NCBI GenBank assembly: GCA_949316235.1 | Contig: OX438753.1 | Span: 18,408,801-18,472,800, forward strand | From: Oegoconia quadripuncta | Lineage: Eukaryota; Arthropoda; Insecta; Lepidoptera; Autostichidae | Length of the DNA stretch: 64,000 nt | Direction: 5' to 3' | Shown: one piece after another, positions 2,701 to 35,734 of the stretch | Layout: each line of letters begins with the position of its first letter | Position numbering within the stretch: position 1 is the stretch's first letter | The notes under the pieces: model-generated | Seen by the model: the letters and a program-made list of their open reading frames with translations, nothing else | Database searches by the model: none | What the model was told of the DNA's origin: nothing | Made by a program: the position numbers and the translations under genes

Positions 2701-2707
2701 TTTTTTT

Positions 2708-17847: not shown

Positions 17848-18010
17848 GTTAATGGCAATGTTAATAGCATTGTTGTGTTCCGGTTGGCAGAAATAAGATA
17901 GCCAGTCCCTCAAATGTGTTGGGGTTTCCGGGTCAGTACGCTTCCACCTTCGACCTCATCTTCACTTAACATCAGGTGTGATTGAGGTCAAATACCAACC
18001 CGTTGTGAAT
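17848..18010 (+). mobile_element. SINE family A, partial copy
   Basis: Contains the family A blocks (GCATTGTTGTGTTCCGGTTG, GGGGTTTCCGGGTCAGTACG, CTTCACTTAACATCAGGTG) and ends in an A-run at 18010-18020. The head is absent. Confidence 0.7.
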
Positions 18011-18020
18011 AAAAAAAAAA

Positions 18021-19084
18021 TCATAGACGGAAGGTGTGAGTTAAGGTAGAGTCTGCAGATATAGATAAGTATTAGTAGTGGCAAAAACATGCTGTAAAAC
18101 TGATGTAAAAGGACGATCTATAATTTTTTCTTTAGTTGGTAGTATCGTGCACCCTACCTGTTTTCCTACCTAAAAATGTCCCATTTGTGGGTTGTCTGGA
18201 AGAGATTATAGTGATAACACCGCCTAATTGTAATGTGTTCTATTGTTATCATCAAAAATTATTGTAAATTATTTTGCGCAATAAAAAGTATTTGTATTGT
18301 ATTGTATTGTAAAAGGAAGAAATAAGTTGCTGCAAGGTTGCCCGTATCGTTGATCGCAGTAAATGCACGGGTATAAATAGTGGGAACTAACCGCGCACGC
18401 GCACAATAAACGGCTGATGGAACTGGCCCATCAATGTGTGCGTCATTCAGGTGCCTCCGAGTAACATTTTAGTTGTGAATAATCGTGCTGTTTACATCTG
18501 CGGTATGGAAGTTGCAAACTAGATTATCATGGATGTATGGATACGTCATCGTACCGCTTTTGAATTCAATTGCTTTGCGATAAAGTCCAAAAGTGATCAG
18601 GATCTTTGTGTGATTCGATGTATCCGTCGTATTTTATTTTGTTGTTGTATAACACATGTACATATCCGCAGTTGTGGATGAATTGGCCTTGCCATCGTTT
18701 TGTTTCTTTGTTTGCAGTGAAGATGTATGATGTGTACCTAACTCCCCTTTTAAACCTCGACCAAAAACAACGGGTGTTATATGTTTGGAATTGTGCATGT
18801 GGGTGTCTAGTCTTTGTCCGGATGTATCTGAATAATGCGAAGTTTGATAAGAAATTTTCTTATTAAGATTAAACTAGGGGAAAGGGTGTTAGGTATGTTT
18901 AATGAAAAGAAATGCTATTATAATGATTTCTAAATTTTAAATTTATGTTATTATTAAGAACTGTCTATTGTGCTATTAAATGTCCACAACAATAATCTAG
19001 GTATTTCTTTTATTCCTGTCACAGAGCCTGATGTTCGACTTTAAGGTAAGATCGTCGGTCCACTTAGCTGTTGCGTTCCTCACT
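18021..19084. other. Intergenic, no gene seen
   Basis: No coding signal. 18230-18312 is a retroposon 3' tail ending in a (TATTG)n pentamer run, the mirror of the tail at 37520-37560. Confidence 0.4.
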
Positions 19085-20593: not shown

Positions 20594-20729
20594 AACAATG
20601 TCTGGCGCAGTCAGTCCTTGGATGGGTGACCAGACCACTGGTGGCATTTTAATGCGAGTACTTCAGAGGCACGGTAAATGTCGGTGCCAGTTGTTTTCAA
20701 TTGAAGGCAGTCGTTAAACTAAGTCGGTA
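20594..20729 (+). mobile_element. 5S-rRNA-derived SINE, left half (Polinton target)
   Basis: GTCAGTCCTTGGATGGGTGACC matches the internal control region of 5S rRNA as used by 5S-derived SINEs. The body then runs GTTTTCAATTGAAGGCAGTCG up to TCGGTA at 20724-20729. The right half resumes at 35735. The related copy at 59990-60195 shows the two parts joined. Confidence 0.75.
20724..20729 (+). repeat. Target-site duplication TCGGTA, left
   Basis: TCGGTA lies directly before the first element base. The identical hexamer follows the last element base at 35729-35734. Six-base duplications are the norm for Maverick/Polinton integration. Confidence 0.93.
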
Positions 20730-21467
20730 AGTAGTACGTATTCGAGAGTTCTGGACCAGCCCCGGGCCCTCCCCCTAAAAAAAAGGTCACCACGGTGTGT
20801 TCCCCCTTTCACGGTCTCATTGGCGGCTTTAATTGGGTCGTTATTGACGGATTTGCCAGTTAACTTTGTTTGCTAATTATAATGGCTAGTAAAAAATTGT
20901 CCTTATCTAACCTAATAATAGGTTCACACATAAATCAAGTGGACGATAACTCCTCGGCTTTTGGCGCTTTTGTGTACCTACAACTGATACAAGTCTGAAC
21001 TTGTTCATGGTAAGCATAGCGATTACAGCAGGTGTATGTTTTTAATATGGAAAAAAATTAAATTTATTGTCAGCAATGAAACTGCCTTTCCATTATTCTT
21101 TTATTTAGTTTTCTAATTTATGATCAATTTATATTTATGGCAGTAGTCGACAAAAAACATGCACCTTTTACGGTGAATAGAAACTTCGTAATTTAAGTTA
21201 TTTCATTATAGTATACCATTTTTTCCTAGTAAGATTTGGAAACAGGTGAGACTTTTTTGCTCGTCACGTTGGAATGTGTACGCCTTTAGATGAAATGATA
21301 ACGATCACCCACTGTCAAATTTATTTATGTTAGTTATTCTTTAGATCGCCATCTGCGGCATACGCAGTATTTTTTCTTAATTTTTTAATTCGATTCAATA
21401 ATAAATATGTAGGGTTAATTCTTAATAGCTACTACGTATGTGGTATCACCACTCTACCTGGATAGGG

Positions 21468-21503
21468 TATTTAAAGCGAGACGGCTTGTACAGCACCACA
21501 GTC
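21468..21503 (+). promoter_or_regulatory. TATA box and initiator of the left TIR gene
   Basis: TATTTAAA at 21468-21475 is followed about 30 bp later by CACAGT (21497-21502), close to the arthropod initiator consensus. The spacing fits an RNA polymerase II core promoter. It lies 78 bp upstream of the ATG at 21581. Confidence 0.6.
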
Positions 21504-21580
21504 CAAATTCGATCGCCCGCCTCGCCTCGAGACACAGTCGTACATTTCATAGTGAAAAGTGTTAAACTACGCTTTCTGTC

Positions 21581-22157
21581 ATGTCGGTAAGTTTTTGTCT
21601 GTAACTACATTGTTTATGTGTTGTCTACTTTACCTGGACGATCTGTTTCGATGCAATTGCTTGACCTAACCTTCGTTTTCTGCTCGTTTCAGACGTCGAT
21701 TCCTGACAGTGATTACACCTTTAAGAACTATTACTTTCCTACTGCCGATCTAAGCGACGATGATGAAACTCAAGATCCTCCTGCCTTGAAGGTCAAGCAA
21801 AACATTGCTAAGAGAAACATTGATTGTTTCTTTGAGAAGCCCAAGAAAAAGAGGGTCCGACTACAGTCTTCCAATATTGCCCAAGCTAACGGAGAAGGAA
21901 CTTCATACATTTCATCGAATAATGATGACGGATCCTCAGCGAGTCATCTCATTAAAATAGAAGTGTATGAGATGAAAAAGTTGAAAGATGTTCAACCAAT
22001 TGATTACTGGAAATATGCAGATGTTCGTGTTAAATATTACGCCTCAGAAGACGACAAGCATTACCGAAATGTAAGAGATTTAATTTACAATATAACAAAA
22101 CAGGTGGCAACGAAGACCGACTGCACAAAGTACTACATAACAGCGGATAAGAAATAA
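21581..22157 (+). CDS. TIR-encoded nuclear protein, spliced, left copy (unknown function)
   Basis: I do not recognise the family. Exon 1 is only ATGTCG (21581-21586). A GTAAGT donor opens a 106-nt intron that ends in TTTCAG, and exon 2 is 21693-22157, giving 156 residues. Without splicing the only in-frame ATG lies inside the intron, so the spliced form is preferred. The protein has an acidic patch (DLSDDDETQD), then FFEKPKKKRVRLQ, which contains the PKKKRV core of a classical nuclear localisation signal. A serine-rich linker and a lysine/tyrosine-rich C-terminal domain follow. A TATA box and initiator lie just upstream. The gene is wholly within the terminal repeat, so the element carries two copies that read inward from both ends. 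A regulatory or host-interaction role is inference from nuclear signal, position and separate promoter. Confidence 0.75.
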
Positions 22158-22367
22158 TTCCTGGAATAGCCCGTTTCTTGCGACTCCCAATAGAGCAACG
22201 TTATAATTTATGGGTTTCTTCTTAGCACATTAACTGTCGCGACGCAGACTCTACTGAAAAACAGCAATAAATTTTTCGTTCCCCACCGTTTTATACCTGT
22301 CTATAAGATACACCTCATATAAGCCACATGCCACCGAGAGATACATTTGTCTAACGCAGGCAGAAGG

Positions 22368-22499
22368 ATGGCACACTTCGAAACTCAATACGATGACCAA
22401 CTGGTACGACTGTGTCTCGAAGCCGAACAAGACGAAATCGACCGACAACTCTATGAACTCTACGATGATGTCGCAAACCAAGGACCAACAAAATCGTAA
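22368..22499 (+). CDS. Small ORF crossing the left TIR boundary
   Basis: The ATG at 22368 opens a 43-codon frame. Its first 30 residues (starting MAHFETQYDDQLVRL) are identical to the start of the 103-residue protein at the right end, because both lie in the terminal repeat. After the repeat ends (22457) the left frame runs only 14 more codons to TAA. The stop overlaps a GTAAGT donor-like site (22496-22501), so splicing to a further exon is possible. The function is unknown. It may be a truncated by-product of repeat expansion. Confidence 0.4.
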   Translation: MAHFETQYDDQLVRLCLEAEQDEIDRQLYELYDDVANQGPTKS

Positions 22500-22668
22500 G
22501 TTTTTTTTTCCCTTGTTTTTATTGTTATGATTCTATACCCGAACGAGTAACTTGTATGAACATGTACCAAACTAATGTAGAGGGGGCGAGTATGGGTCGG
22601 TATATAAACGAGTTGTTCTGGGGTATTGGTATCACTAACAATTAATTCGTAGTTTTGAATTTAGAACA
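22500..22668 (+). other. Short spacer before the polymerase genes
   Basis: Unique element DNA between the left repeat and the polymerase. It contains TATATAAAC at 22600-22608, about 60 bp upstream of the ATG at 22669, a possible TATA box for the polymerase transcript. Confidence 0.35.
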
Positions 22669-23646
22669 ATGTTGTCTTTGTCGACTAATGAAATACTATC
22701 ATTAAATAAATTACTTATAATAAGTAAATTTCATCGTTGTATTAGAATGTGGTATATTAGTCACAAACTGCCTAATGCCATGTTGGAGGACTTAGAGATT
22801 ATGCCCTATTATACACCTTGTCGTGGTCATTCAAAAAAAAATTATGTGACTACTGGAGAGACCGATGAAATTGATGGTGTTATGCTAATGCAAGCATATT
22901 GCAAGCTGTGCAATGTGAGTATTATAATCGAGTTCTCGATTGTAATATTAATTTTGAATGTTTACTTTAACCTATACTTATTAACCTATGCACCTCTTTA
23001 CAGATCGAGTTCTCAAGTTGGCGGGAAAAGAAAATCGGAATCATGTGAAGGAACTGCTTCGAAGACTCGTCGAACACTAGAATGTCAAGATTATCAAGAA
23101 CCATCAACATCAAGAATAGTGCCCCCAACTGTGAGTTACTTAGATAAACTAATAGTAGAATGTACCATATGTAAAGTGTCAGTCAGCAAGCGATATTTTT
23201 CTAGCCATTTAAAGAGTAATTTACATAAAAATAATTTAATTACTGTTCACGATAACTTAGCAAATGTTCAGGTTATTGAGAGTGCATTTGGACAAAGGGT
23301 AAAAACTTACCGAATAACTTCAGACTCCAATATATTACATTTAGAAGTCGAAACGCCTGAATCATTTCTATTAGGAATAAAATCCACTTTATTACAACTG
23401 ATGAGCAAATGCATTAGTGATTTAACCCTCATCAAGGTAAATTTTATTTTACATGCCGATTTTGTGCAACAAACAAAAGATTTACACAATTCTTTTGACT
23501 TTCAAACTTTTAATTATAGCTATTGCGTGGGGGATGATCCTGATAGCATAATTTCATTAATTTTTAAAGAAATTTCTGAAAAAGTTAGTAATTTTGAAAA
23601 GAAAGACAGCGGTTGGAGTTTGGAGAAAATTCATATCTTGATATGA
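22669..23646 (+). CDS. DNA polymerase B, N-terminal part (frameshifted from rest)
   Basis: A 325-codon frame from ATG 22669. It holds a C2H2-type zinc finger (CTIC-x12-HLKSNLH) and the conserved region ending KKDSGWSLEKI that in Polinton polymerases runs straight into the segment LDMNVNKFNPLRG. Here that segment is in the frame of the next ORF, and this one ends in ATATGA at 23646. The expected join is therefore lost by a 1-nt (or +2) shift near 23635. Residues 83-111 are hydrophobic and come from a stretch bounded by GTGAGT (22915) and TTTACAG (23003). Removing it as an intron would bring an early stop, so it was not called as an intron. The true start of the polymerase is thus uncertain. 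Confidence 0.65.
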   Translation: MLSLSTNEILSLNKLLIISKFHRCIRMWYISHKLPNAMLEDLEIMPYYTPCRGHSKKNYVTTGETDEIDGVMLMQAYCKLCNVSIIIEFSIVILILNVYFNLYLLTYAPLYRSSSQVGGKRKSESCEGTASKTRRTLECQDYQEPSTSRIVPPTVSYLDKLIVECTICKVSVSKRYFSSHLKSNLHKNNLITVHDNLANVQVIESAFGQRVKTYRITSDSNILHLEVETPESFLLGIKSTLLQLMSKCISDLTLIKVNFILHADFVQQTKDLHNSFDFQTFNYSYCVGDDPDSIISLIFKEISEKVSNFEKKDSGWSLEKIHILI

Positions 23647-26600
23647 ATGTTAATAAATTTAACCCTTTACGCGGTTCCTCCTATATAGACTTGCCTCTTG
23701 ATATAAAACACAAAAAAGCCATCGTAAATGTTAAAAATAATGACCAACAATGTTTTCAATGGGCTGTACTTTCCGCACTATATCCAGCTGCTCAACATTC
23801 TGACAGAGTAACGTCATATTTAAGTCATAAAAACAAATTAAATTTCACAAACATTCCTTTCCCGATGAAACTTAAAGATATTCATAAATTTGAACAGCTA
23901 AATAATATCAGCTTAAACGTTTTCGGTTTAGAATATGTTGCTAAAGAGAAAAAAAACCAAATCATTGGGCCTTTATACTTCACGAAACATCGAAAAGAAA
24001 CTCACATTAATTTATTATATTTGAAAAATGGTGCTAGTAACTGTGGCCATTACTGCTACATAAAGAATTTATCTAGATTAGTTAGTAATCAAATCACTGC
24101 GAGACACGGCGCTGTTTATATCTGTGACGGCTGTTTGCTGTATTTTCCAACACAGGAACAGTTAAACAATCACTATCAGTTCGATTGTAATCATATAAAA
24201 ACTGATTTACCAAATGACAAGCCGAGGAAAACCATATGGTGTGGAGAACCGCTACCTAATAACAGATTAGCCTTCAACAATTATGAGAAAAAATTAAAAA
24301 TTCCGTTTGTAGTGTACGCAGATTTCGAATCATTTTTAAAGCCCATACAAACATGTAAAAACGACCCATCTAAATCCTTCACAGCCAATATACAAAAACA
24401 CGAAGTGTATAGTTTCGGCTATTATATTAAATGTTCATACAATGATCAACTTTCTGTTTATAGAAAGTATACGGGTGAAGATTGTGCCCAGGTTTTTATG
24501 AAATTTCTTAAAAATGATTTAATTAACATCTGTCGAAAAAACTCCTTTCAGATATGTCCAGTGCCATTGACCACCGAAAATAATCGGGATGTGTTACAAA
24601 GTAGGGTATGTTTTATTTGTGAAAGTGAATTGAAAAATGATTCCACGGTATATTGTGATTGGTATACTGGCTTGTACAAAGGAGTTGCTCACTCGATGTG
24701 TGCTTCTAATTATAGAGCTCCCCGGTTTGTTCCTGTCTTTTTGCACAACTTAAATAATTATGATGCACATTTCATTGTTCACGCGCTGAATTTTGATGAG
24801 GGAGATATTGAAATAATTCCCCAAAACAAGGAAAAGTATATATCATTTTCAAAAAAAATTAATGTTTTAAATAATACTATGACCTTGAGATTTTTAGATT
24901 CTTTTAAATTCATGTCGTGTAGTTTGGAAAAGTTAGCACAAAATCTTAAAACCGACAAATTTCATGAACTCCATAAAAATTTTCCGGATCAAGAAGATTT
25001 TAAGCGTTTGACTAGGAAAGGCATTTTCCCTTATGAATATATGACTTCATTTAATATATTAAAACAAGATTATCTTCCAGCCCAAGATAAATTTTATAAC
25101 TCGCTGGTAAATGAGCATGTTTCACTGGAAAGTTATAAACACGCAGAAGACGTATGGAATCATTTTAATTGTAAAAATATGTCTGATTACTCAGATTTAT
25201 ATTTAAAAACCGACGTCTTATTACTAACTGACATATTTGAGAATTTCAGAAGTTTATGTTTATCTACTTATGATTTAGACCCTGCTCATTATTTTACTGC
25301 GCCCGGTCTGAGTTGGGATGCCATGTTGAAGTATACAAAAGTAAACCTAGAACTTCTGACCGATTTTGCCAAAATTGCGTTCATAAAAAAAGGTATTAGA
25401 GGCGGTATTTCTCAATGTAGCAATAGACACGCGAAAGCTAATAATATGTTCATGGAAGACTACAATAATGAATTACCTTCATCCTATTTGATCTACCTAG
25501 ATGCAAATAACCTGTACGGTTGGGCTATGTCACAATATCTCCCCATCGGTGAGTTTGAATGGGTTGATGTAAATACTAATTTCAACGTTTCAGATGATTC
25601 AGAATATGGATTCGTGTTAGAAGTTGATTTACAATATCCTGATAATTTACACGATTCTCATTCCGATCTACCTTTCTGTCCGGATAATTTATGCTCTGAA
25701 AATAGCAAAGAAAAAAAATTAATACTAAATTTAAACAATAAAACTAAATACATCATCCATTATAGGAATCTAAAACAATGTTTAAAATATGGTTTACAAT
25801 TAACGAAAGTACACCGAGTACTTAAATTTAAACAAAGTATATGGCTGAAAAAATACATCGATTTAAACACAAATATGCGTACTTTAGCGGTCTCAGACTT
25901 TGAAAAGGATTTTTATAAACTAATGAATAACTCTGTCTTTGGAAAAACTATGGAAAATATCGAAAAACGGGTTAATGTAAAACTACTCACACATTGGGAG
26001 AATCGAGGTAAAGTTGAAGGTGCTCAATCATTAATATCGAGGCCTGAATTTCACAGTCTTTCAATTTTCTCAGAATCGTTGGTAGCTATACAATTAAGAA
26101 AAACTAAATTGCTGTATAACAAGCCTATATATTTAGGTTTTTGCATATTAGATATTTCGAAAACATTAATGTATGACTTTCACTATGACTATATGAAAAT
26201 TAAATTTCAAAAGAATTTAAAACTACTTTATACTGATACCGATAGTCTTATCTATCAGATATATAGTAAAAATATATATTATGACATAAAGCCCGATTTA
26301 TTGACTTACTTTGATACATCTGATTATCCCATGGATAATAAGTATGGGTTACCGCTAGTTAATAGGAAGAAACTAGGTCTCTTTAAAGATGAAAATAATG
26401 GAAAAATATTTAGAGAGTTTGTTGGATTGAGATCAAAAATGTATGCGATTGATGTAGACCACAAATTTACAGCAAAAGCAAAAGGTGTCAATAAAAATGT
26501 GACAAAGAATTTTAATATGGAGCAATATAAAAGTTGCTTATTCCAAAAAAAGATTCACATTTCTGAGATGTTGCGATTCAAATCTATTAAACATGTAATT

Positions 26601-26723
26601 TATACCCAAAAAATTAATAAGATTTCTTTATCGCATAATGACACCAAAAGGCATTTACTGGAAAATTGTACTGATACTCTAGCTTGGGGACACTATAAAT
26701 TAAGAAAAAGTGAACACTTTTAA
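23613..26723 (+). CDS. Protein-primed DNA polymerase B, catalytic part
   Basis: Replicates the element genome from a protein primer at its ends, by the family model. The open frame starts at 23613 and its first ATG is 23643. In residue numbering from 23613 there is a C2HC zinc motif at 171-192. Exonuclease motifs are Exo I YADFE (D237, E239), Exo II HNLNNYD (D384) and Exo III YLKTD (Y530, D534). A cysteine-rich insert lies at 333-363. Polymerase motifs are A LDANNLYG (D630), B KLMNNSVFG (K769) and C YTDTDS (D875, D877). All catalytic acidic residues are present. The length is in the family range only if the upstream 325-codon ORF is counted as the missing N-terminus, so a frameshift separates the two. 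About 720 bp of non-coding DNA follows. Confidence 0.93.
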   Translation: MEFGENSYLDMNVNKFNPLRGSSYIDLPLDIKHKKAIVNVKNNDQQCFQWAVLSALYPAAQHSDRVTSYLSHKNKLNFTNIPFPMKLKDIHKFEQLNNISLNVFGLEYVAKEKKNQIIGPLYFTKHRKETHINLLYLKNGASNCGHYCYIKNLSRLVSNQITARHGAVYICDGCLLYFPTQEQLNNHYQFDCNHIKTDLPNDKPRKTIWCGEPLPNNRLAFNNYEKKLKIPFVVYADFESFLKPIQTCKNDPSKSFTANIQKHEVYSFGYYIKCSYNDQLSVYRKYTGEDCAQVFMKFLKNDLINICRKNSFQICPVPLTTENNRDVLQSRVCFICESELKNDSTVYCDWYTGLYKGVAHSMCASNYRAPRFVPVFLHNLNNYDAHFIVHALNFDEGDIEIIPQNKEKYISFSKKINVLNNTMTLRFLDSFKFMSCSLEKLAQNLKTDKFHELHKNFPDQEDFKRLTRKGIFPYEYMTSFNILKQDYLPAQDKFYNSLVNEHVSLESYKHAEDVWNHFNCKNMSDYSDLYLKTDVLLLTDIFENFRSLCLSTYDLDPAHYFTAPGLSWDAMLKYTKVNLELLTDFAKIAFIKKGIRGGISQCSNRHAKANNMFMEDYNNELPSSYLIYLDANNLYGWAMSQYLPIGEFEWVDVNTNFNVSDDSEYGFVLEVDLQYPDNLHDSHSDLPFCPDNLCSENSKEKKLILNLNNKTKYIIHYRNLKQCLKYGLQLTKVHRVLKFKQSIWLKKYIDLNTNMRTLAVSDFEKDFYKLMNNSVFGKTMENIEKRVNVKLLTHWENRGKVEGAQSLISRPEFHSLSIFSESLVAIQLRKTKLLYNKPIYLGFCILDISKTLMYDFHYDYMKIKFQKNLKLLYTDTDSLIYQIYSKNIYYDIKPDLLTYFDTSDYPMDNKYGLPLVNRKKLGLFKDENNGKIFREFVGLRSKMYAIDVDHKFTAKAKGVNKNVTKNFNMEQYKSCLFQKKIHISEMLRFKSIKHVIYTQKINKISLSHNDTKRHLLENCTDTLAWGHYKLRKSEHF

Positions 26724-27445
26724 GTTATTTTTTACGTCAGGAACATTTTTTAGTTTTATATAAAAAAGTTATTATTCACACGTCGTAGCCTTATATAATT
26801 AATTAACCTATTGTGTCAAATTTTTATTACATGCGTATGTAGCGTGTAGCACTATTTTTGCAATTTGTTTCGCTTCATTGTATGAAAATAGTTTTGTAGT
26901 CGTAGTATAACGTATATAGTATTTTGTGGGGGGGTCCTAGAACTCAGGTTGTTGAGCAACTAATGTGTATAGAAAATCTAAAAATGTATAAGTAAATTAA
27001 ACATAGTTAATTATTATTTTTGTAATTTTAAAATGAAAGATAATACTAATTGAGATGTTAAATTGATTTTATTGTTTTTTTTTTTTTACTTTGATAATAT
27101 GCTGATATATGAGGGAGAGGAGGCCTTTGTCCAGCAGTGGGACATTGGGAGCTTATAATAATAATATATGCTGATAAAATCAAAGTAAAAATTAAATGAA
27201 ATTTCTGTGTATATGTGGGAAGTATATGAATATATTTATCGACACTCATATAATAATAATACTGTATGATGACTAATTTTAAAAGATGTGTTGTTGTGGA
27301 GTTTCTTAGGTCGCTTCTTCTCCATAGCCATAACACCTTTTTGAAGCGATATAGTAAAAAATTTAAAGTTTATAATAAGTGTTTTATTGTTTTTATTCCA
27401 TTCCCCCATTCTACAGCCTGCAAGTAACACGCTCAATAATGAAAA
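26724..27445 (+). other. Non-coding gap between polymerase and ATPase
   Basis: 722 bp, AT-rich, with a GTGGGGGGG run at 26925-26934 and a long T-run at 27075-27088. It contains a nested 58-bp retroposon (27108-27165). It is the longest gap in an otherwise tightly packed element and could hold a late promoter or the remains of a lost gene. No coding signal was found. Confidence 0.5.
27097..27176 (+). mobile_element. 58-bp retroposon 3' fragment nested in the Polinton
   Basis: 27108-27165 is flanked by ATATGCTGATA on both sides (27097-27107 and 27166-27176), an 11-bp duplication. The insert carries GGCCTTTGTCCAGCAGTGGG and ends in an AATAATAAT tail, the 3' end of lepidopteran non-LTR elements/SINEs seen elsewhere in this window. 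It is a severely 5'-truncated insertion that arrived after, or in an ancestor of, the Polinton copy. Confidence 0.8.
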
Positions 27446-28108
27446 ATGATTCATTTCATACACCCCTTCACAGCTATAGTAGCAGGTCCTAGTGGGTGTG
27501 GTAAATCAAACTTTGTCACTAATTTTCTTAAATTTATGAAAGAAATATGTAACACTAATTTTTCACGAGTAGTATGGTGTTACGATGAAATGCAACCTTT
27601 ATATAATTTGAACAACGTCGACTACAGTCAAGGTATACCGGATTTAAACATGTTTGATGGGAAGCAACCACAATTACTTATAATAGATGATCTTATGAGA
27701 GAATCCGATGGTCGTATAGTGGACATTTTTACTAAAGGTAGTCATCATAGAAACCTTAGCGTGTTTTATATAACACAAAATTTATTTCATCAAGGCAGAG
27801 GACAACGTGACATTTCTTTAAATTCAAGTTACATAGTATATTTTAAAAATCCCCGGGATAGAACACAAATACGCCATTTAGCGCGCCAAGTGTTCCCAGA
27901 TAACTCTAAGTTCGTAGAAGAAGCTTATAAAGATGCTACGTCAGAAGCACATGGCTATCTAATGATTGATTTAAAGCAAAATACAGACGATATGTGTCGT
28001 TTTAAGACTAAGATATTTCCCCTCAATAGCAATTGTGTAGTTTATGTATCGAAAAAGGGTTATAAATATAATACGTATCGTGATAAAATTACAGTTAACA
28101 GTAGATAA
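27446..28108 (+). CDS. Genome-packaging ATPase (FtsK/HerA, A32-like)
   Basis: A 220-residue P-loop ATPase that, by family knowledge, drives DNA into the capsid. Walker A is AGPSGCGKS (residues 13-21) and Walker B is LLIIDD (77-82). A downstream FYITQNLFHQGRG segment is the sensor/arginine region typical of A32-like packaging enzymes. The start at 27446 gives MIHFIHPFTAIVAG, placing the P-loop near the N-terminus as usual. Its TAA overlaps the next ATG by one base (TAATG). Confidence 0.93.
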   Translation: MIHFIHPFTAIVAGPSGCGKSNFVTNFLKFMKEICNTNFSRVVWCYDEMQPLYNLNNVDYSQGIPDLNMFDGKQPQLLIIDDLMRESDGRIVDIFTKGSHHRNLSVFYITQNLFHQGRGQRDISLNSSYIVYFKNPRDRTQIRHLARQVFPDNSKFVEEAYKDATSEAHGYLMIDLKQNTDDMCRFKTKIFPLNSNCVVYVSKKGYKYNTYRDKITVNSR

Positions 28109-28326
28109 TGTCTGAAGAAGCAGTGACACGAGATCGAGAGTTAGTTTTACAAGTACTAACACCTAAATATCGCAAAGCTCTATTAAAAGAATGTACTGAT
28201 GACAAAATAAATCGTATCTGTGAAAGTATTTTAGATACTTTGGATGAAATCCCCATAAAGGAAGTCCGGGAATCAAAATTTAGCTTCTTAAATCTACATT
28301 GTTTCTTTTCAACAAACATTGCTTAG
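28108..28326 (+). CDS. Small virion-associated-type protein, truncated paralogue 1
   Basis: 72 residues starting inside the TAATG overlap with the ATPase stop. The core LTPKYRKALLKECTDDKINRICESI aligns with LKPKYCTALLKVCKDEEINCLCECI in the next ORF, so the two are tandem duplicates. Unlike its neighbour it lacks the basic and hydrophobic C-terminal tail and ends in a different stretch (FSFLNLHCFFSTNIA). It may be a truncated or diverging copy. The function is unknown; in related elements one such gene sits at this position. Confidence 0.65.
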   Translation: MSEEAVTRDRELVLQVLTPKYRKALLKECTDDKINRICESILDTLDEIPIKEVRESKFSFLNLHCFFSTNIA

Positions 28327-28377
28327 TATTTGCTTCTAATATTAACAACATTGTAAAAATATTATCAGTCGTTTACA

Positions 28378-28707
28378 ATGGTTGGTAGAGTGACGACGCA
28401 TCTAGACTTATTAAAAGCATTACATACACTCAAACCTAAGTATTGTACAGCTTTATTGAAGGTTTGTAAGGATGAAGAAATAAATTGTTTATGTGAATGC
28501 ATTTATAATATTTTAAATGGTAAAATTCCTCTGAAGAATCAAGATAAATCCAAGTTGAATAAATACAAAACTATATTGAGAAAATTGGTGTCTAAAGGTA
28601 AAAGTAACTCTCGAAAACGAATTATTATACAGAAAGGTGGAGCATTCCTACCCATTATTTTAGGTTCCGTTCTCAGTGGATTACTAAGTTCGTTTCTAAA
28701 TAAGTAA
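28378..28707 (+). CDS. Small basic/hydrophobic-tail protein, paralogue 2
   Basis: 109 residues: a helical core with PKYCTALLKVC and a CECIYNILNGKIPL segment, a lysine/arginine-rich stretch (KGKSNSRKRIIIQKGG), and a hydrophobic C-terminal tail (FLPIILGSVLSGLLSSFL). I recall this architecture as a common small protein of Polinton/adintovirus genomes, next to the capsid genes. The basic part followed by a membrane-active-type tail suggests a minor virion or DNA-condensing protein, by inference. It is the full-length member of the tandem pair with 28108-28326. Confidence 0.7.
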   Translation: MVGRVTTHLDLLKALHTLKPKYCTALLKVCKDEEINCLCECIYNILNGKIPLKNQDKSKLNKYKTILRKLVSKGKSNSRKRIIIQKGGAFLPIILGSVLSGLLSSFLNK

Positions 28708-28715
28708 AAATTACA

Positions 28716-29483
28716 ATGGAACATACAAAGAAAATGATACTTGTGGAACCCCACATCCTAGAAAGGATTAGAGACAGTAACCATGTTCATGAAAAGCCCT
28801 TATCCCGTCTTGATGAGGAAATGAGTAAAATCTTACACAGTAAAATTGATGATCGTGAGAAGTGGACACAGTACTCGCAAATTTTACAAAGATATTTACA
28901 TTTTGCTAATAAAGAACGTCATCCCATTAAATTACCAATAGTTACAGATGACTCTATGTATGATGTTTTTAAGACTATTAAAAAGGAAGAAAGTGATGTT
29001 AAAACAATAGTTCCAGAATTGCCAAGAATAGAGGAAGACGTAGCAGCGGAAAAACATATCTCATCACGTTACACTCCAAATTATTTATTTAAGTATATAC
29101 CAAAAACATATAAAAAGAAGGGCGAGTTGTTATTGGAAGGTATATTGGATCATGAAAATATTATTAAATGGGATACCAATGGTCATGTTGTAATCAATGA
29201 CGAAGTTATTGATAACAGTAATATTGTGGATTTAGTGAACGATGCCCTAAGACCATTACGACGCCCAAAACCATTAGGCTGGGAGAAGTTTGCTTCAGCT
29301 TTAAGGGATATAAAAATACCGTTATCTTGTATAGGTAACCCAGAAACGCTTGAATATATTAATAATATTCATTCATCTGATTTAGAGAAAGACGATCCAG
29401 CTCAAATTAAAACGCCAAAGCAAAAACCTGGTGGCTTGTTTCACAAAAGAAAACTTGACTGGGAGAAATGGACTCCCATATAG
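28716..29483 (+). CDS. Conserved Polinton protein of unknown function
   Basis: 255 residues. MILVEPHILERI at the start, then LDEEMSKIL and WTQYSQILQRYLHF, a glutamate/lysine-rich middle, and a C-terminal KPGGLFHKRKLDWEKW. I recall this N-terminal pattern (positively charged start, 'LDEEM', 'Y.Q.LQRYL') from unannotated proteins of many invertebrate Polintons, always beside the integrase. No enzymatic motif is visible. It starts 8 nt after the preceding stop, and its last 16 nt overlap the integrase start. A structural or capsid-linked role is inference from position. Confidence 0.7.
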   Translation: MEHTKKMILVEPHILERIRDSNHVHEKPLSRLDEEMSKILHSKIDDREKWTQYSQILQRYLHFANKERHPIKLPIVTDDSMYDVFKTIKKEESDVKTIVPELPRIEEDVAAEKHISSRYTPNYLFKYIPKTYKKKGELLLEGILDHENIIKWDTNGHVVINDEVIDNSNIVDLVNDALRPLRRPKPLGWEKFASALRDIKIPLSCIGNPETLEYINNIHSSDLEKDDPAQIKTPKQKPGGLFHKRKLDWEKWTPI

Positions 29484-30550
29484 ATAATATAAATAAAATT
29501 TATTATGATGTCTCTCATCCAGCTGGATACAGTAGCATTGAAAAATTGACGAAAGCTATGCAAGGGAAAATGAATGAAAAGGATGTAAAGAAGTGGTTAC
29601 AATCCCAAGAAACTTATACTTTACATAAACCTGTCAATAGGCGATTTCCTAGAAATAAATATATTTTATCTAATTTTAATGAACTCTGGCAAGCAGATTT
29701 AAGTGACATGCGAACATACAATCAATATAATGATGGATTTAATTATATTCTCTGTGTTATTGATGTGTTTAGTAAGTATGCATTTGCGAGACCTATGAAA
29801 AAGAAAAATTCTAAAACTGTAAAGATATGTTTTGAAAGCATATTTATTGAAGCGAAAGCTACTCCTAGACATATACAATCTGATAAAGGTACAGAATTTG
29901 TTTCAAGAGATGTAAACCAGTACTTCAAAAAGAAAAATATTAATTACTATACAACTAACAATCCGGACATAAAGGCCAGTATTGTGGAAAGATTTCAAAG
30001 AACCCTAAAAATGAAAATGTGGCGATATTTCACACATAATAATACGTATAGGTATGTTGATATTTTACAAGATTTATTATATTCTTATAATCACAGTGTC
30101 CATTCAAGTATAAAAATGTGTCCAAGTGATGTGAATTCCAGTAATATAATGACAGTATGGTCTAATTTATATGATAGGTACAACTTAAACACTTCAGACC
30201 GATTACCATTTAAAGTAGGTGATTATGTTAGAATAACGAAATATAAACACATTTTCCAGAAAGGTTATGAAACAAATTGGTCCGATGAAATATTTGTAAT
30301 AGAATCCATTGTAAAAAGACTTCCTTGGTTGGTTTACAAATTAAAAGATCTACAAAATGAATCAATAATTGGTACATTTTATGGAAGGGAATTACAAAAA
30401 GTAATCTATGACCCCACTATTACCTACAAAATAGATAAAATAATACGCACTCGCTATTCTGGCAACAGAAAGGAAGTGCTAGTCAAATGGAAAGGATATC
30501 CTAATAAATTTAATAGTTGGATATCCGCATTAAACTTAGAAACAATATGA
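29468..30550 (+). CDS. Retroviral-type integrase with C-terminal chromodomain
   Basis: A 360-residue rve-family integrase. It joins the element ends to chromosomal DNA and is responsible for the 6-bp target duplication seen here. The catalytic triad is D77 (WQADLSD), D139 (QSDKGTEF) and E174 (ASIVERFQR), with 34 residues between the second Asp and the Glu. A chromodomain occupies about 320-357 (YKIDKIIRTRYSG, VLVKWKGYP, FNSWI). Chromodomains in Polinton and some Gypsy integrases may guide insertion to marked chromatin. The ATG at 29468 lies within the end of the previous gene. The ORF is complete and apparently functional. Confidence 0.95.
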   Translation: MDSHIDNINKIYYDVSHPAGYSSIEKLTKAMQGKMNEKDVKKWLQSQETYTLHKPVNRRFPRNKYILSNFNELWQADLSDMRTYNQYNDGFNYILCVIDVFSKYAFARPMKKKNSKTVKICFESIFIEAKATPRHIQSDKGTEFVSRDVNQYFKKKNINYYTTNNPDIKASIVERFQRTLKMKMWRYFTHNNTYRYVDILQDLLYSYNHSVHSSIKMCPSDVNSSNIMTVWSNLYDRYNLNTSDRLPFKVGDYVRITKYKHIFQKGYETNWSDEIFVIESIVKRLPWLVYKLKDLQNESIIGTFYGRELQKVIYDPTITYKIDKIIRTRYSGNRKEVLVKWKGYPNKFNSWISALNLETI

Positions 30551-31326
30551 CGGAAGATAGTTTTTATCTTACTTTGCCAAGCAATAGTTCAACTGCATAT
30601 TTCCCCCAAAATACAACCGCCAACTTTGTAACAAAGTTACCTAAAACTGTTCAATTGGAAGGAGAATGGGTTGTAGGATTAGCTGAATTTCATTATCCCT
30701 GTGCTATATTTAACGTCCAAGAAAATGAGAATATTCTTTTCGTCAAGAAGAAAGTAATAGTCGAAGGAGATGACGAATCATTAATATCAGTGGAATATAA
30801 ATCCCAAATTCCTTCATTTCCTTATGATAACATCAACAATTTTCTAAAAGTATTTAATGAAAATAGCCTCCTACAAAATCAAGTGGCATTCCAAATTGAT
30901 AACGACTCGAAACTTATCACTGTTACGAACTTAACTCGCAGTGTATCATCGTTGATTTTGTCACCTACATTAAATCTTCAACTCGGTTTCGAGCCATATA
31001 CAAATTTAATTGCGGATCCATACGCTAAATACCCAGCGAACTTACAATTAGGATTACCATCACAGCTATTTATTTACTCTGATATTATTCATCCTCAAAT
31101 AGTTGGAGATGTAATGACCTCATTATTTAGAATCATACCGCTAGATCCATCAAAATACAACTATGGTGCTTATAAAATGCACGTATTATCTCCAATTCAT
31201 TATCTTCCAGTAATGCGCAGAGAATTTGACATAATCGAAATAGATATAAGAACAAGCATTGGTAATAGAGTTCCATTCCAGTTTGGAACTGCATGTGTTA
31301 AACTACATTTTAAACGAATAAAATGA
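30547..31326 (+). CDS. Penton-like minor capsid protein
   Basis: 259 residues from the ATG at 30547, which overlaps the integrase stop as ATGA. The frame is open further upstream, but only non-ATG codons lie there. The start FYLTLPSNSSTAYFPQNTT, then GEWVVGLAEFHYP, and the ending MRREFDIIEIDIRT, VPFQFG, VKLHFKR are the pattern I recall for the penton/minor capsid protein of Polintons (single jelly-roll, capsid vertices). It precedes the pVI-like and major capsid genes, as expected. The assignment is from remembered family pattern and context; it is not proven by a motif. Confidence 0.75.
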   Translation: MTEDSFYLTLPSNSSTAYFPQNTTANFVTKLPKTVQLEGEWVVGLAEFHYPCAIFNVQENENILFVKKKVIVEGDDESLISVEYKSQIPSFPYDNINNFLKVFNENSLLQNQVAFQIDNDSKLITVTNLTRSVSSLILSPTLNLQLGFEPYTNLIADPYAKYPANLQLGLPSQLFIYSDIIHPQIVGDVMTSLFRIIPLDPSKYNYGAYKMHVLSPIHYLPVMRREFDIIEIDIRTSIGNRVPFQFGTACVKLHFKRIK

Positions 31327-31772
31327 ATTATAAGCGTGATAATATCGTTTGTCCTTATCATCATTATTATTCTAATCAAGCTGGATCAGGTGTAGGTATC
31401 ATATACAGAGGTGTACCGCATCAACGTGGTCACGGCATTGGAAGTTTTTTGGGCGGACTATTTAGATCTGTATTTCCACTCATAGCAAGTGGTGCCAAGA
31501 CAGTCGGGAAAGAGGCATTAAGCGCAGGAGTAGGTTTATTATCAGATATGGTCAGGGCACAACCAATGGGGGAATCAATTAAGTCTCGACTCAAAGAAGC
31601 AAGTGCTAATTTAAAACGAAAAGCGGATAACAAAATTGATTCGCTTATGTCTGGCTCAGGGTATAAAATCAAGAGACTTCGAAAGAAACCTACCATTTCA
31701 TTGAAACCATCTAAGCGAAGAGGAGTTGACAGGAAGAAAAAAAGTAATATAAAAGATATATTTTCAAATTAA
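31323..31772 (+). CDS. pVI/pX-like small virion protein
   Basis: 149 residues. A glycine-rich amphipathic segment (GIGSFLGGLFRSVFPLIASG), then AKTVGKEALSAGVGLLSDMV and a strongly basic C-terminal part (KIKRLRKKP, KPSKRRGVDRKKK). This layout matches the adenovirus protein VI / pX type of internal capsid proteins, which carry a membrane-active helix and bind DNA or the capsid interior. Its start overlaps the previous stop as ATGA, and it ends 2 nt before the major capsid ATG. GSG-type sequences (about residue 110) could be sites for the element's protease, by inference. Confidence 0.75.
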   Translation: MNYKRDNIVCPYHHYYSNQAGSGVGIIYRGVPHQRGHGIGSFLGGLFRSVFPLIASGAKTVGKEALSAGVGLLSDMVRAQPMGESIKSRLKEASANLKRKADNKIDSLMSGSGYKIKRLRKKPTISLKPSKRRGVDRKKKSNIKDIFSN

Positions 31773-31774
31773 CT

Positions 31775-33088
31775 ATGTCGTTTCTTCATAATAATTCTTG
31801 TGAGTGTGTTAAATCAGAGTTAGATCTTTTTGCTATACCATCAACACAGACAAGTATTGAGAGTGGGCAATGGATTCATTGTACACCGATATCATCGCTA
31901 AGTGATGAAGGACCAATTGAATTTGTTATGCCAGGAAGTGGAGATGACTACATTGATTTGTCACACACCCTCCTTCATGTTAAAGCTAAAATTATAAACC
32001 TAGATTCTACCACTCCTCCCCCTGATGAGAAGACAGCACCTGTTAATAATTGGTTGCATTCACTTTTCAACCAATTAGATGTTTATCTAAATCAAAAACT
32101 TGTATCACCTCCTAATAACACATATGCTTATCGGGCTTATATTGAGACTCTACTTAATTATGGACCAGCGGCAAAACAATCACACTTGACTTGTGGTATG
32201 TGGTACGAAGATACAGCTTCAAAGATGGATTCATGTGATGACAACAACAAGGGCTTTCACAAAAGACATCAACGGGTAAAAGACGGCAAATCAGTTGAAA
32301 TGATTGGACATTTGCACGGTGATCTATTTAATCAAGAAAAGTTCTTAATAAATGGGGTAGAAATACGTGTTAAATTAGTACGTAACAAAGACACTTTTAA
32401 TTTAATGTCATCATCAGTGAATTCAAAATATAAAGTTCAAATTGATAGCGCTACTCTTATATTGCGAAAGGCAAGAATAAATCCATCCGTTTTACTCGCT
32501 CATCAAAAAGTTTTAACCACTACAACTGCAAAATATCCAATTACTCGCGCTGAAGTTAAAGTTTTAACTATTCCATCAGGAGTCCGTGGAAAAACAATTG
32601 ACAATGTATTTCTTGGTCAGGTGCCGAAAAGATGTATTATCGGATTTGTTGATAATGTTGCTTTTAATGGTACTTTCAATACCAATCCATTTAACTTCGA
32701 TAATCATGATATAAATGTATTTAGCTTGTATGTAGATGGGCAACAAATTCCTTCTAAAACCCTAATGCCATCATACCGTAGCGGTGTGTTTACGAGTAGT
32801 TACCATACGTTATATACTGGAACAGGTATTCACTTTTTGAATGAAGGCAATTCCATATCGATTGAGGACTATGCAAATGGATACTGCTTAATGGCATTTG
32901 ATTTAACTCCTGATCTATCTGCTAACTCAAGTTCCCACTGGAATTTGATAAAACATGGGTGTGTTAGAATAGAAGTCCAATTTGAATCAGCTCTTGCAAA
33001 AACTCTTAACTGCATTGTGTACGCAGAGTTTGACAATGTTATAGAAATTAATAAAAATAGAGATGTGAGTGTAGATTATAATAGTTAA
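31775..33088 (+). CDS. Major capsid protein (hexon-like, double jelly-roll)
   Basis: 437 residues. The N-terminal DLFAIPSTQTSIESGQW, PIEFVMPGSGDDYIDL and WLHSLFNQLDVYLN segments are those of the invertebrate protein group often annotated 'F54H12.2-like', which I recall is the Polinton/adintovirus hexon, the main capsid building block. The middle has PNNTYAYRAYIETLLNYGPA, another hallmark. The ORF is intact. It follows the pVI-like gene by 2 nt and precedes the protease by 109 nt. The double jelly-roll fold is established for the family and is not visible directly here. Confidence 0.85.
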   Translation: MSFLHNNSCECVKSELDLFAIPSTQTSIESGQWIHCTPISSLSDEGPIEFVMPGSGDDYIDLSHTLLHVKAKIINLDSTTPPPDEKTAPVNNWLHSLFNQLDVYLNQKLVSPPNNTYAYRAYIETLLNYGPAAKQSHLTCGMWYEDTASKMDSCDDNNKGFHKRHQRVKDGKSVEMIGHLHGDLFNQEKFLINGVEIRVKLVRNKDTFNLMSSSVNSKYKVQIDSATLILRKARINPSVLLAHQKVLTTTTAKYPITRAEVKVLTIPSGVRGKTIDNVFLGQVPKRCIIGFVDNVAFNGTFNTNPFNFDNHDINVFSLYVDGQQIPSKTLMPSYRSGVFTSSYHTLYTGTGIHFLNEGNSISIEDYANGYCLMAFDLTPDLSANSSSHWNLIKHGCVRIEVQFESALAKTLNCIVYAEFDNVIEINKNRDVSVDYNS

Positions 33089-33197
33089 GTATTCAGCATT
33101 TTTGTATCTATTATAGTATATAAGATTTCCATATAATATTTTTCATCATTATCCGTTAAACTACCTTAATGTATGTATTTAAGAAAGTATTTCAATA

Positions 33198-33635
33198 ATG
33201 GATACACACGAAATTAGACTATTTATGAAAAAGATAAATCACAGTCTAGAATTTAACGTGTTCCCTGCTAACAGAATACCAATGTACATAGAAGCACCCA
33301 CTTACTTTATTTCTAACTTGGATCCTGATACAAAATCGGGATCACATTGGGTAGCCATTCATATCAATGCTAATGGTATCGGTGAATATTTTGATTCATA
33401 TGGTAGAAAGCCTACCGGCCACCATAAATCGTTTTTGAAAAGAAATACTCGGAAATGGTTTTACAATAATAAAATTCTTCAAAGTCACTTAACTTCTGTT
33501 TGTGGTGAATACTGTTTAGTGTATCTGTACTTTAAGTTTATGAATATGAGCATGTCAGAGTTTTTAAGAGATTTTTGCGATATTCCTTTGTATAACGATA
33601 TATTCATAAATAAAATATTTAAAACCATTTTTTGA
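33198..33635 (+). CDS. Adenain-type cysteine protease
   Basis: 145 residues. It matures capsid proteins, by analogy with adenovirus protease (C5/Ulp-like). The catalytic set is visible: H50 in SGSHWVAIHI, D66 in EYFDSYG, Q95 in LQSHLTSVCG and C102 in VCGEYC. The spacing and order H-D-Q-C match the family. It is short compared with adenain (about 200) but normal for Polintons. The ATG at 33198 follows a spacer with TATAGTATATAAG (33111-33123), a plausible TATA region. Confidence 0.9.
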   Translation: MDTHEIRLFMKKINHSLEFNVFPANRIPMYIEAPTYFISNLDPDTKSGSHWVAIHINANGIGEYFDSYGRKPTGHHKSFLKRNTRKWFYNNKILQSHLTSVCGEYCLVYLYFKFMNMSMSEFLRDFCDIPLYNDIFINKIFKTIF

Positions 33636-33778
33636 AATAAATTTATTTTACCAATTATCTGTTTTTTATTTACATTATCCTATTTTGATATAGAAGAGTG
33701 AAGATAATGAAACATCAGAATTACAGTTTTACTTTATTTATTTTCTAATTAAACATTATAATACAATATTGTAGCTAA

Positions 33779-34090
33779 CTAATCTATCTGCGGGGTTGGA
33801 CTATAGACACCCGGTGATAATGAAAACAATTTTTCAGACGCCCACGACGTTTCATAAACTTCTTCTTCCTGTTCCAATGACATGAGTGGGTTCGCTGGCC
33901 GCTGCAGAAATGTTAGTATAGGGGGAGGTGAGGGTCTTGAATACCCACCATAATCGTAATTGGCCCACTGGCGGAGATTATTTAGGTTTTCTTCATGGAA
34001 TTCATAGAGTTGTCGGTCGATTTCGTCTTGTTCGGCTTCGAGACACAGTCGTACCAGTTGGTCATCGTATTGAGTTTCGAAGTGTGCCAT
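33779..34090 (-). CDS. Unknown small protein crossing the right TIR boundary
   Basis: 103 residues on the minus strand from ATG 34090 (the frame also opens 7 codons upstream at a TTG, which is not a likely eukaryotic start). The first 30 residues are coded inside the right terminal repeat and match the start of the short left ORF. The remaining 73 (including RPSPPPILTFLQRP and a glutamate run) are coded in unique DNA. It follows the spliced TIR gene in the same direction. Not recognised. The left end carries only a 43-codon version, so this appears to be the complete gene. Confidence 0.55.
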   Translation of the reverse strand: MAHFETQYDDQLVRLCLEAEQDEIDRQLYEFHEENLNNLRQWANYDYGGYSRPSPPPILTFLQRPANPLMSLEQEEEVYETSWASEKLFSLSPGVYSPTPQID

Positions 34091-34300
34091 CCTTCTGCCT
34101 GCGTTAGACAAATGTATCTCTCGGTGGCATGTGGCTTATATGAGGTGTATCTTATAGACAGGTATAAAACGGTGGGGAACGAAAAATTTATTGCTGTTTT
34201 TCAGTAGAGTCTGCGTCGCGACAGTTAATGTGCTAAGAAGAAACCCATAAATTATAACGTTGCTCTATTGGGAGTCGCAAGAAACGGGCTATTCCAGGAA

Positions 34301-34877
34301 TTATTTCTTATCCGCTGTTATGTAGTACTTTGTGCAGTCGGTCTTCGTTGCCACCTGTTTTGTTATATTGTAAATTAAATCTCTTACATTTCGGTAATGC
34401 TTGTCGTCTTCTGAGGCGTAATATTTAACACGAACATCTGCATATTTCCAGTAATCAATTGGTTGAACATCTTTCAACTTTTTCATCTCATACACTTCTA
34501 TTTTAATGAGATGACTCGCTGAGGATCCGTCATCATTATTCGATGAAATGTATGAAGTTCCTTCTCCGTTAGCTTGGGCAATATTGGAAGACTGTAGTCG
34601 GACCCTCTTTTTCTTGGGCTTCTCAAAGAAACAATCAATGTTTCTCTTAGCAATGTTTTGCTTGACCTTCAAGGCAGGAGGATCTTGAGTTTCATCATCG
34701 TCGCTTAGATCGGCAGTAGGAAAGTAATAGTTCTTAAAGGTGTAATCACTGTCAGGAATCGACGTCTGAAACGAGCAGAAAACGAAGGTTAGGTCAAGCA
34801 ATTGCATCGAAACAGATCGTCCAGGTAAAGTAGACAACACATAAACAATGTAGTTACAGACAAAAACTTACCGACAT
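34301..34877 (-). CDS. TIR-encoded nuclear protein, spliced, right copy
   Basis: The second copy of the gene at 21581-22157. Exon 1 is 34872-34877, the intron is 34766-34871 (GTAAGT to TTTCAG on the minus strand), and exon 2 is 34301-34765. The coding content is the same: 156 residues with the PKKKRV nuclear signal. It reads inward from the right end and is followed by the 103-residue gene in the same direction. Confidence 0.75.
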
Positions 34878-34955
34878 GACAGAAAGCGTAGTTTAACACT
34901 TTTCACTATGAAATGTACGACTGTGTCTCGAGGCGAGGCGGGCGATCGAATTTGG

Positions 34956-34990
34956 ACTGTGGTGCTGTACAAGCCGTCTCGCTTTAAATA
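34956..34990 (-). promoter_or_regulatory. TATA box and initiator of the right TIR gene
   Basis: The mirror of the left promoter: TATTTAAA (34983-34990 on the minus strand) with a CACAGT initiator about 30 bp downstream. Confidence 0.6.
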
Positions 34991-35728
34991 CCCTATCCAG
35001 GTAGAGTGGTGATACCACATACGTAGTAGCTATTAAGAATTAACCCTACATATTTATTATTGAATCGAATTAAAAAATTAAGAAAAAATACTGCGTATGC
35101 CGCAGATGGCGATCTAAAGAATAACTAACATAAATAAATTTGACAGTGGGTGATCGTTATCATTTCATCTAAAGGCGTACACATTCCAACGTGACGAGCA
35201 AAAAAGTCTCACCTGTTTCCAAATCTTACTAGGAAAAAATGGTATACTATAATGAAATAACTTAAATTACGAAGTTTCTATTCACCGTAAAAGGTGCATG
35301 TTTTTTGTCGACTACTGCCATAAATATAAATTGATCATAAATTAGAAAACTAAATAAAAGAATAATGGAAAGGCAGTTTCATTGCTGACAATAAATTTAA
35401 TTTTTTTCCATATTAAAAACATACACCTGCTGTAATCGCTATGCTTACCATGAACAAGTTCAGACTTGTATCAGTTGTAGGTACACAAAAGCGCCAAAAG
35501 CCGAGGAGTTATCGTCCACTTGATTTATGTGTGAACCTATTATTAGGTTAGATAAGGACAATTTTTTACTAGCCATTATAATTAGCAAACAAAGTTAACT
35601 GGCAAATCCGTCAATAACGACCCAATTAAAGCCGCCAATGAGACCGTGAAAGGGGGAACACACCGTGGTGACCTTTTTTTTAGGGGGAGGGCCCGGGGCT
35701 GGTCCAGAACTCTCGAATACGTACTACT

Positions 35729-35734
35729 TCGGTA
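35729..35734 (+). repeat. Target-site duplication TCGGTA, right
   Basis: Matches 20724-20729 exactly and directly follows the last element base. Confidence 0.93.

What the first reader, a model, noticed from the sequence alone, without database searches (positions are those of the whole stretch)
20730..35728. A complete 15-kb Polinton/adintovirus-like element with intact ends
Termini (5'-AG), 6-bp duplication TCGGTA, 1,728-bp inverted repeats and an uninterrupted integrase, ATPase, protease, major and minor capsid set are all present in one copy. Such structurally complete copies are the best candidates for recent mobilisation or virion formation.
Basis: partly seen in the sequence, partly recalled or inferred. 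Interest (0 to 1): 0.9.

Follow-up and report, generated by a model that had tools for sequence, protein, structure and literature searches.

The report
Fresh burst of an insect Maverick
This is one of more than a hundred almost identical copies of a virus-like jumping element in an insect genome; this copy has perfect ends but a split DNA-polymerase gene, and small differences between copies suggest how such elements copy their DNA.

Summary
The element is real: 14,999 bp, perfect 1,728-bp inverted repeats, AGTAGT tips, 6-bp duplication TCGGTA. It is an insect Maverick/Polinton in the gene order described for vertebrate Mavericks, all core genes on one strand; predicted models support both capsid folds. 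Two corrections. And it is not alone: capped searches find 116 loci in the same genome with integrase and/or capsid gene, every listed match 100% identical (rounded) without stops. Of 83 copies whose ends I read, 77 had both ends found and 75 of those have a 6-bp duplication. In 20 copies compared, 9 of 10 right-repeat variant bases also stand in the left repeat of the same copy (0 of 20,000 shuffles). 14 of 83 copies carry tandem arrays of the terminal 62-256 bp; four of five junction types start inside what looks like a further AGT. This fits protein-primed, jumping-back replication, which the papers I saw only predict for Mavericks.

The parts
20724..20729 (.). left target-site duplication TCGGTA
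20730..22457 (+). left terminal inverted repeat, 1,728 bp, tip AGTAGT
   Evidence: 0 mismatches to the right repeat
21591..22157 (+). 188-aa ORF inside the left repeat (mirror image at 34301-34867 on the minus strand); function unknown
   Evidence: no family
22639..23646 (+). frame with the N-terminal part of the DNA polymerase gene (cut off from the rest in this copy)
   Evidence: homologues of the polymerase are about 1,240 aa long
23598..26723 (+). family B (protein-primed type) DNA polymerase, main frame, 1,041 aa
   Evidence: 7,978 homologues; relatives called DNA-directed DNA polymerase; relative P0216 matches PF03175 E 2e-27; the window protein itself gives no PF03175 match
27443..28108 (+). 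packaging-type ATPase, P-loop protein
   Evidence: PF00910 E 2.5e-4; Walker motifs by eye
28357..28707 (+). 116-aa ORF in the place of Maverick PM
   Evidence: position only
28704..29483 (+). 259-aa ORF in the place of Maverick PZ
   Evidence: position only
29459..30550 (+). retroviral-type integrase with C-terminal chromodomain
   Evidence: PF00665, PF00385
30517..31326 (+). minor capsid (penton-like) protein
   Evidence: model m23534e70e4fc; Foldseek top mavirus penton 6g41 E 6.3e-9, then adenovirus penton base
31314..31772 (+). 152-aa ORF in the place of Maverick PW
   Evidence: position only
31748..33088 (+). major capsid protein, double jelly-roll
   Evidence: model m074e7ba4735d; Foldseek top Sputnik virophage 3j26 E 1.2e-16, then PBCV-1, iridovirus, mavirus capsid proteins; 1,969 homologues
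33183..33635 (+). adenain/Ulp1-like cysteine protease (weak)
   Evidence: PF02902 E 0.026, below cut-off; residues by eye
34001..35728 (-). right terminal inverted repeat, tip ACTACT
35729..35734 (.). right target-site duplication TCGGTA

Best explanation
An integrated copy of a recently multiplied Maverick/Polinton of an insect (probably a moth or butterfly). Shown: ends, 6-bp duplications at different sites, near-identity of copies, capsid-type folds, concerted variation of the two repeats, terminal tandem arrays, a split polymerase in this copy. Inferred: the element multiplies as linear DNA by its own protein-primed polymerase, which starts at the AGT repeats and jumps back; the two repeats are copied from one another in each cycle (for example through annealing of the ends of a displaced strand); the replicating end probably carries a third AGT of which the integrase leaves two; slips or template jumps at the end leave arrays of the terminal 62-256 bp; the integrase then inserts the DNA at a weakly palindromic site (A-Y-R-T in the middle four of the six duplicated bases, T three bases before, A three bases after). 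Whether DNA travels in capsids between cells or only within the germ line is open.
For: Ends and duplication; families and folds; 116 loci, 91 with integrase and capsid gene at exactly the window's spacing; 75 of 77 copies with both ends found have a 6-bp duplication, 70 different ones among the 71 found automatically; weak palindrome at 71 sites: third and fourth duplicated base exceed random window sites in 2,000 of 2,000 and 1,999 of 2,000 draws, the four other positions at p about 0.01; host repeats run across 11 of 51 rebuilt empty sites; 9 of 10 right-repeat variant bases shared with the left repeat of the same copy, shuffles mean 0.75, maximum 7 in 20,000; arrays in 14 of 83 copies, same unit at both ends in 7, and a 1-2 base remainder that equals the end of AGT at four of five junction types; two left ends with three AGT; one copy (C2:23703246) whose left repeat runs at least 229 bp on into right-side sequence.
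Against: The fifth junction type (256 bp) has no extra base; a single T is a weak signal (about 0.3 by chance). Six arrays are on the left end only, five of them the same 107-bp type, which complete homogenisation in every cycle would not predict if they descend from one event. Two of 77 copies lack the duplication (C12:23382229, C13:19039501). The window protein has no Pfam polymerase match and the ATPase and protease matches are weak. No extrachromosomal DNA, RNA or protein was seen.
Confidence: 0.75

Rival explanations
1. The repeats are made alike after insertion by gene conversion within the chromosome, not by replication.
For: It would also give variants shared by the two repeats of one copy.
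Against: One shared variant (repeat position 157) stands in both repeats of three separate copies, as expected if already homogenised DNA was inserted; eight unshared events show that copies do not quickly become alike after insertion.
Confidence: 0.15
2. The terminal arrays come from integrase: one end of an element was joined into the repeat of another (or of itself) before insertion.
For: Gives the right order, outer unit joined to a complete tip; 256-bp type has no extra base.
Against: Integrase joins (AGT)2 directly to the target in 75 of 77 copies, whereas four of five array junction types have 1-2 extra bases before (AGT)2; identical units at both ends in 7 copies still need copying from end to end.
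Confidence: 0.2
3. The many identical copies and perfect repeats are an artefact of assembly (one element copied into many gaps, or haplotype duplicates).
For: Identical repeats cannot be told from collapse without reads; three copies lie on small contigs (C26, C39, C44).
Against: Different flanks and different 6-bp duplications, private substitutions (26 singletons in 19 copies), copies on 20 large contigs.
Confidence: 0.03
4. The copies spread by repeated infection of the germ line by virions rather than by intracellular transposition.
For: Capsid, penton-like protein, ATPase and protease frames are kept; all 95 capsid matches listed are without stops.
Against: Nothing here separates it from transposition: copies this young would look intact either way. 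No relative was found in the viral contigs.
Confidence: 0.35

Closest known systems
Sf Maverick 1 and 2 of Spodoptera frugiperda cells (PMC5803895; I read section 11, part 1, and passages)
   Same: Lepidopteran Mavericks with polymerase, ATPase, integrase with chromodomain and protease; nine frames.
   Different: Their fourth small ORF is a parvovirus-like CAP with a phospholipase domain, and its authors found no PY (capsid) homologue; here the corresponding genes are a penton-like protein and a double jelly-roll capsid protein. No sequence comparison with their records was made.
Vertebrate Mavericks (PMC8097293; I read section 7 and passages)
   Same: 6-bp duplications, (AGT)2 tips, core order polB-atp-pm-pz and int-minor capsid-pw-major capsid-pro; size range 12.7-24.6 kb.
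   Different: All core genes on one strand (reported there for Xenopus tropicalis); repeats of 1,728 bp against 46-1,447; 116 near-identical loci against at most 38 intact copies in one genome.
Nearest proteins in the database
   Same: Capsid protein 88% and polymerase 83% identical to unnamed sequences from read archives; named relatives at 69-78% are moths and butterflies (Plutella, Parnassius, Bicyclus, Melitaea, Cydia).
   Different: No DNA of these relatives was compared.
Maverick-Polintons of Trichomonas vaginalis (PMC10120064; passages)
   Same: High copy number: 2,224 and 4,841 capsid genes in two assemblies.
   Different: A protist; in Paulinella the same paper found only 49 identical copies among 2,678 capsid genes, whereas here every listed match is 100% (rounded).
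Adenovirus and mavirus
   Same: Penton-like and capsid folds; terminal trinucleotide repeat as in adenovirus (recalled; the parallel is drawn in PMC8097293).
   Different: Retroviral-type integrase and chromosomal insertion set it apart from adenovirus; the length and end structure of mavirus were not compared.

Membership tests
[quoted passage not shown]
[quoted passage not shown]
   homology to PF03175-positive relatives; the window protein itself has no Pfam match and its gene is split in this copy
Polinton/Maverick (class Polintoviricetes) | retroviral-type integrase | tested here: met
Polinton/Maverick (class Polintoviricetes) | A32-type packaging ATPase | tested here: inconclusive
   P-loop family just above cut-off, no A32 model matched
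Polinton/Maverick (class Polintoviricetes) | Ulp1/adenain-like protease | tested here: inconclusive
   PF02902 E 0.026, below cut-off
Polinton/Maverick (class Polintoviricetes) | double jelly-roll major capsid protein | tested here: met
Polinton/Maverick (class Polintoviricetes) | jelly-roll minor capsid (penton) protein | tested here: met
   (E 6.3e-9, TM-score only 0.40)
Polinton/Maverick (class Polintoviricetes) | core gene order as in vertebrate Mavericks | tested here: met
   order against PMC8097293 section 7; PM, PZ, PW by position only
Adintoviridae | criteria of the founding paper | not testable with these tools
   PMC8502044 is not held
Adintoviridae | formation of virions | not testable with these tools
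   needs an experiment

The most novel reading that the evidence does not exclude
The copies are a fossil film of the Maverick replication cycle: the replicating form is linear DNA with (AGT)3 ends, the integrase trims one AGT so that (AGT)2 is inserted, the polymerase slips or jumps at preferred places (61, 106, 113, 129 and 256 bases from the tip) and builds terminal arrays, and each round copies one end onto the other, with more change at the left end (arrays 6 left-only against 0 right-only; extra AGT 2 against 0; unshared repeat events 7 against 1). It may still be active in the living insect.
Probability: 0.35. Interest if true: 0.75.

Novelty: new member of a known kind. Interest (0 to 1): 0.6.

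Why it matters
In the papers I saw, replication of animal Mavericks is predicted from sequence and virions have not been observed (PMC8097293, abstract and passages). A family with more than a hundred almost identical copies gives many independent records of single cycles, so jumping-back, end trimming and repeat copying can be tested by reading ends, and a species with so young a family is a place to look for extrachromosomal DNA or particles.

Tried and rejected
Relatives in the viral contigs and phage records: none. Sequence search of solved structures with the polymerase (none) and with the capsid alignment (8 hits to ribonucleases, taken as chance). PHROGs and NCBIfam: no convincing match for the ATPase, protease or the small ORFs. 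Rfam and tRNA scans of the window: nothing. First thought that C7:9440810 had inverted host flanks: wrong, the flanks are a 256-bp array of the element's own end. First thought that every array junction has GT: wrong, remainders are T, T, GT, GT and none. One right end counted as (AGT)3 (C5:13485955) is better read as (AGT)2 with duplication ACTAGG. A nested 20-bp inverted repeat inside each repeat arm was not followed. The left bias is weak: five of the six left-only arrays are the same 107-bp type and may be one lineage; categories were pooled after seeing them. Capture-recapture gives 117, but both lists are capped and the capsid list has no row on C20, C26, C39 or C44, so 116 is a lower bound. 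A count of copies with an open polymerase over the whole genome was tried and not answered. Nine further copies fetched in part (C1:16667075, C2:7194237, C20:17409557, C20:42188521, C20:43176410, C26:25141, C11:3677634, C11:3691495, C19:4685024) were left out of the 83 because an end lay outside the stretch or the copy is rearranged.
Full report
Observation. The element is 20730-35728, 14,999 bp. On the plus strand it carries, in order, two overlapping frames of a DNA polymerase, a P-loop ATPase, two small ORFs, an integrase with chromodomain, a penton-like protein, a small ORF, the major capsid protein and a weakly matched protease. Each repeat also holds a 188-aa ORF without a family match.

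Identity of the genes. Integrase and chromodomain are clear Pfam matches. The 1,041-aa frame has no Pfam polymerase match, but a search with residues 400-1041 found 7,978 homologues, several called DNA-directed DNA polymerase, and a relative matches PF03175 with E 2e-27 over nearly the whole profile; five other relatives scanned, among them the closest, do not. The capsid protein model (29 sequences, pLDDT 74.3, pTM 0.78) has the Sputnik virophage capsid protein as best PDB match (E 1.2e-16), followed by algal virus, iridovirus and mavirus capsid proteins. The penton-like model (35 sequences, pLDDT 79.9, pTM 0.63) matches mavirus penton (E 6.3e-9, TM-score 0.40) and adenovirus penton base. The order equals that of vertebrate Mavericks in PMC8097293 (section 7 read); PM, PZ and PW are named by place only.

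Host. The nearest named relatives of capsid protein and polymerase are moths and butterflies at 69-78%, with beetles next at about 64% for the capsid protein. A short exon-like frame at 47765-48184 resembles an insect odorant receptor (E 7.1e-6, 0.1 bit under the cut-off). The species is not known to me.

This copy's polymerase is split. Of 20 other copies with the left 3.5 kb read, 17 are open from the first frame into the second and up to the end of the stretch; one has an early stop, one another frameshift, one a deletion over the place. The 19 copies that cover the place all lack the window copy's one-base difference. I read this as damage in the window copy and not as a programmed frameshift. 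I did not read the rest of the gene in the other copies.

Copy number and age. A protein search of the 622.6-Mb genome gave 112 integrase matches (112 of 1,606 candidates scored), each 100% identical when rounded (five score slightly lower) and free of stops; the capsid protein gave 95 (95 of 205 scored), all 100% and free of stops. 91 capsid matches stand at exactly the window's spacing from an integrase match; the union is 116 loci. These are lower bounds, and lists of best candidates cannot show older, decayed copies. Over 6.48 kb, 19 copies differ by 26 singleton substitutions, 2.1e-4 per site and copy; 4 of 19 have no private substitution; mean pairwise difference in unique sequence is 4.7e-4 to 5.9e-4. 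With a butterfly rate of about 3e-9 per site and generation (recalled), this is at most some 70,000 generations, fewer if replication or assembly errors contribute.

Insertion. Ends of 83 copies, the window's included, were read (82 fetched; nine more, fetched in part, were dropped). Six lack one end in the stretch. Of 77 with both ends, 71 show a 6-bp duplication automatically and four more by eye where an array or the AGT count had misled the script; two show none. 70 of the 71 are different. At 71 sites there is a weak palindrome, strongest at the third (Y) and fourth (R) duplicated base (0 and 1 of 2,000 random draws as high), with A and T beside them and T/A three bases outside (p about 0.01 each). 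Of 51 rebuilt empty sites (one of which, C7:9440810, was later seen to have an array as flank), 21 resemble repeats in the window and in 11 the resemblance runs across the insertion point: empty counterparts of the filled sites.

The two repeats vary together. In 20 copies, setting aside one A-run that differs between the window and all others, the right repeats hold 10 variant bases and 9 of them are in the left repeat of the same copy; shuffling left and right among copies gives 0.75 on average and never 9 in 20,000. Unshared events are seven on the left and one on the right. One copy has a left repeat that runs at least 229 bp on into right-side sequence.

Terminal arrays. 14 of 83 copies have extra units of the terminal 62 (1 copy), 107 (7), 115 (1), 131 (4) or 256 bp (1). 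Seven have the same unit at both ends (once 2 and 4 extra units, once 2 and 2, else 1 and 1), six on the left only, none on the right only, one has its left end outside the stretch. Units follow the repeat for 61, 106, 113, 129 or 256 bases; then come T, T, GT, GT or nothing, then AGTAGT. Two copies have three AGT at the left tip. I take this as traces of a replicating end with a third AGT. The support is moderate: a single T is common by chance, and one junction has no extra base.

Mechanism. PMC8097293 states that repeated end motifs allow jumping-back in protein-primed replication of adenoviruses and tectiviruses and would be expected to do so in Mavericks (passage). The present copies show marks of such a mode: variable AGT number, arrays that begin at the tip, and repeats copied from one another. 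Steps inferred and not shown: linear extrachromosomal DNA, strand annealing, trimming by the integrase. A left-right difference is suggestive only (arrays 6 to 0, p 0.03; pooled 15 to 1, p 0.0005), as categories were pooled afterwards and five arrays may be one lineage.

Setting. Listings for a record of terminal arrays or jumping-back in Polintons and for Lepidoptera or recent Mavericks showed me none beyond the prediction above, but most subscription papers are not held, the founding Polinton and adintovirus papers among them. Large Maverick families are known: thousands of capsid genes in Trichomonas (PMC10120064, passages), and database clusters of 164 capsid proteins and 57 polymerases from Parnassius mnemosyne suggest that this insect is not unique.

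Noticed in passing
14275-16068 (+) and 54827-55972 (-): Reverse-transcriptase frames (PF00078, E 5.5e-35 and 1.7e-20), remains of retrotransposons beside the element.
   Followed up: no
47765-48184 (-): Exon-like frame resembling an insect odorant receptor (7tm_6, E 7.1e-6, just under cut-off).
   Followed up: no
60867-61307 (-): RanBP1-domain frame (E 4.2e-7).
   Followed up: no
about 560-775, 2699-3010, 17855-18021, 57914-58191: Host interspersed repeat of some 200-300 bp; other Maverick copies lie in or beside its relatives.
   Followed up: partly
L070-L073 (C11:3667800-3701800): Two copies in tandem: the outer ends share the flank AACAAC, the inner left end of one is lost and about 625 bp of unknown sequence lies between.
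   Followed up: partly
L027 (C2:23694317-23697300): Copy whose left repeat is lengthened by at least 229 bp of right-side sequence.
   Followed up: partly
21524-21543 and 22404-22423, mirrored in the right repeat: A 20-bp inverted repeat nested inside each terminal repeat, 860 bp apart.
   Followed up: no
protein hits P0021 and P0152: Database clusters of 164 capsid and 57 polymerase sequences from Parnassius mnemosyne suggest a second young Maverick family in another butterfly.
   Followed up: no
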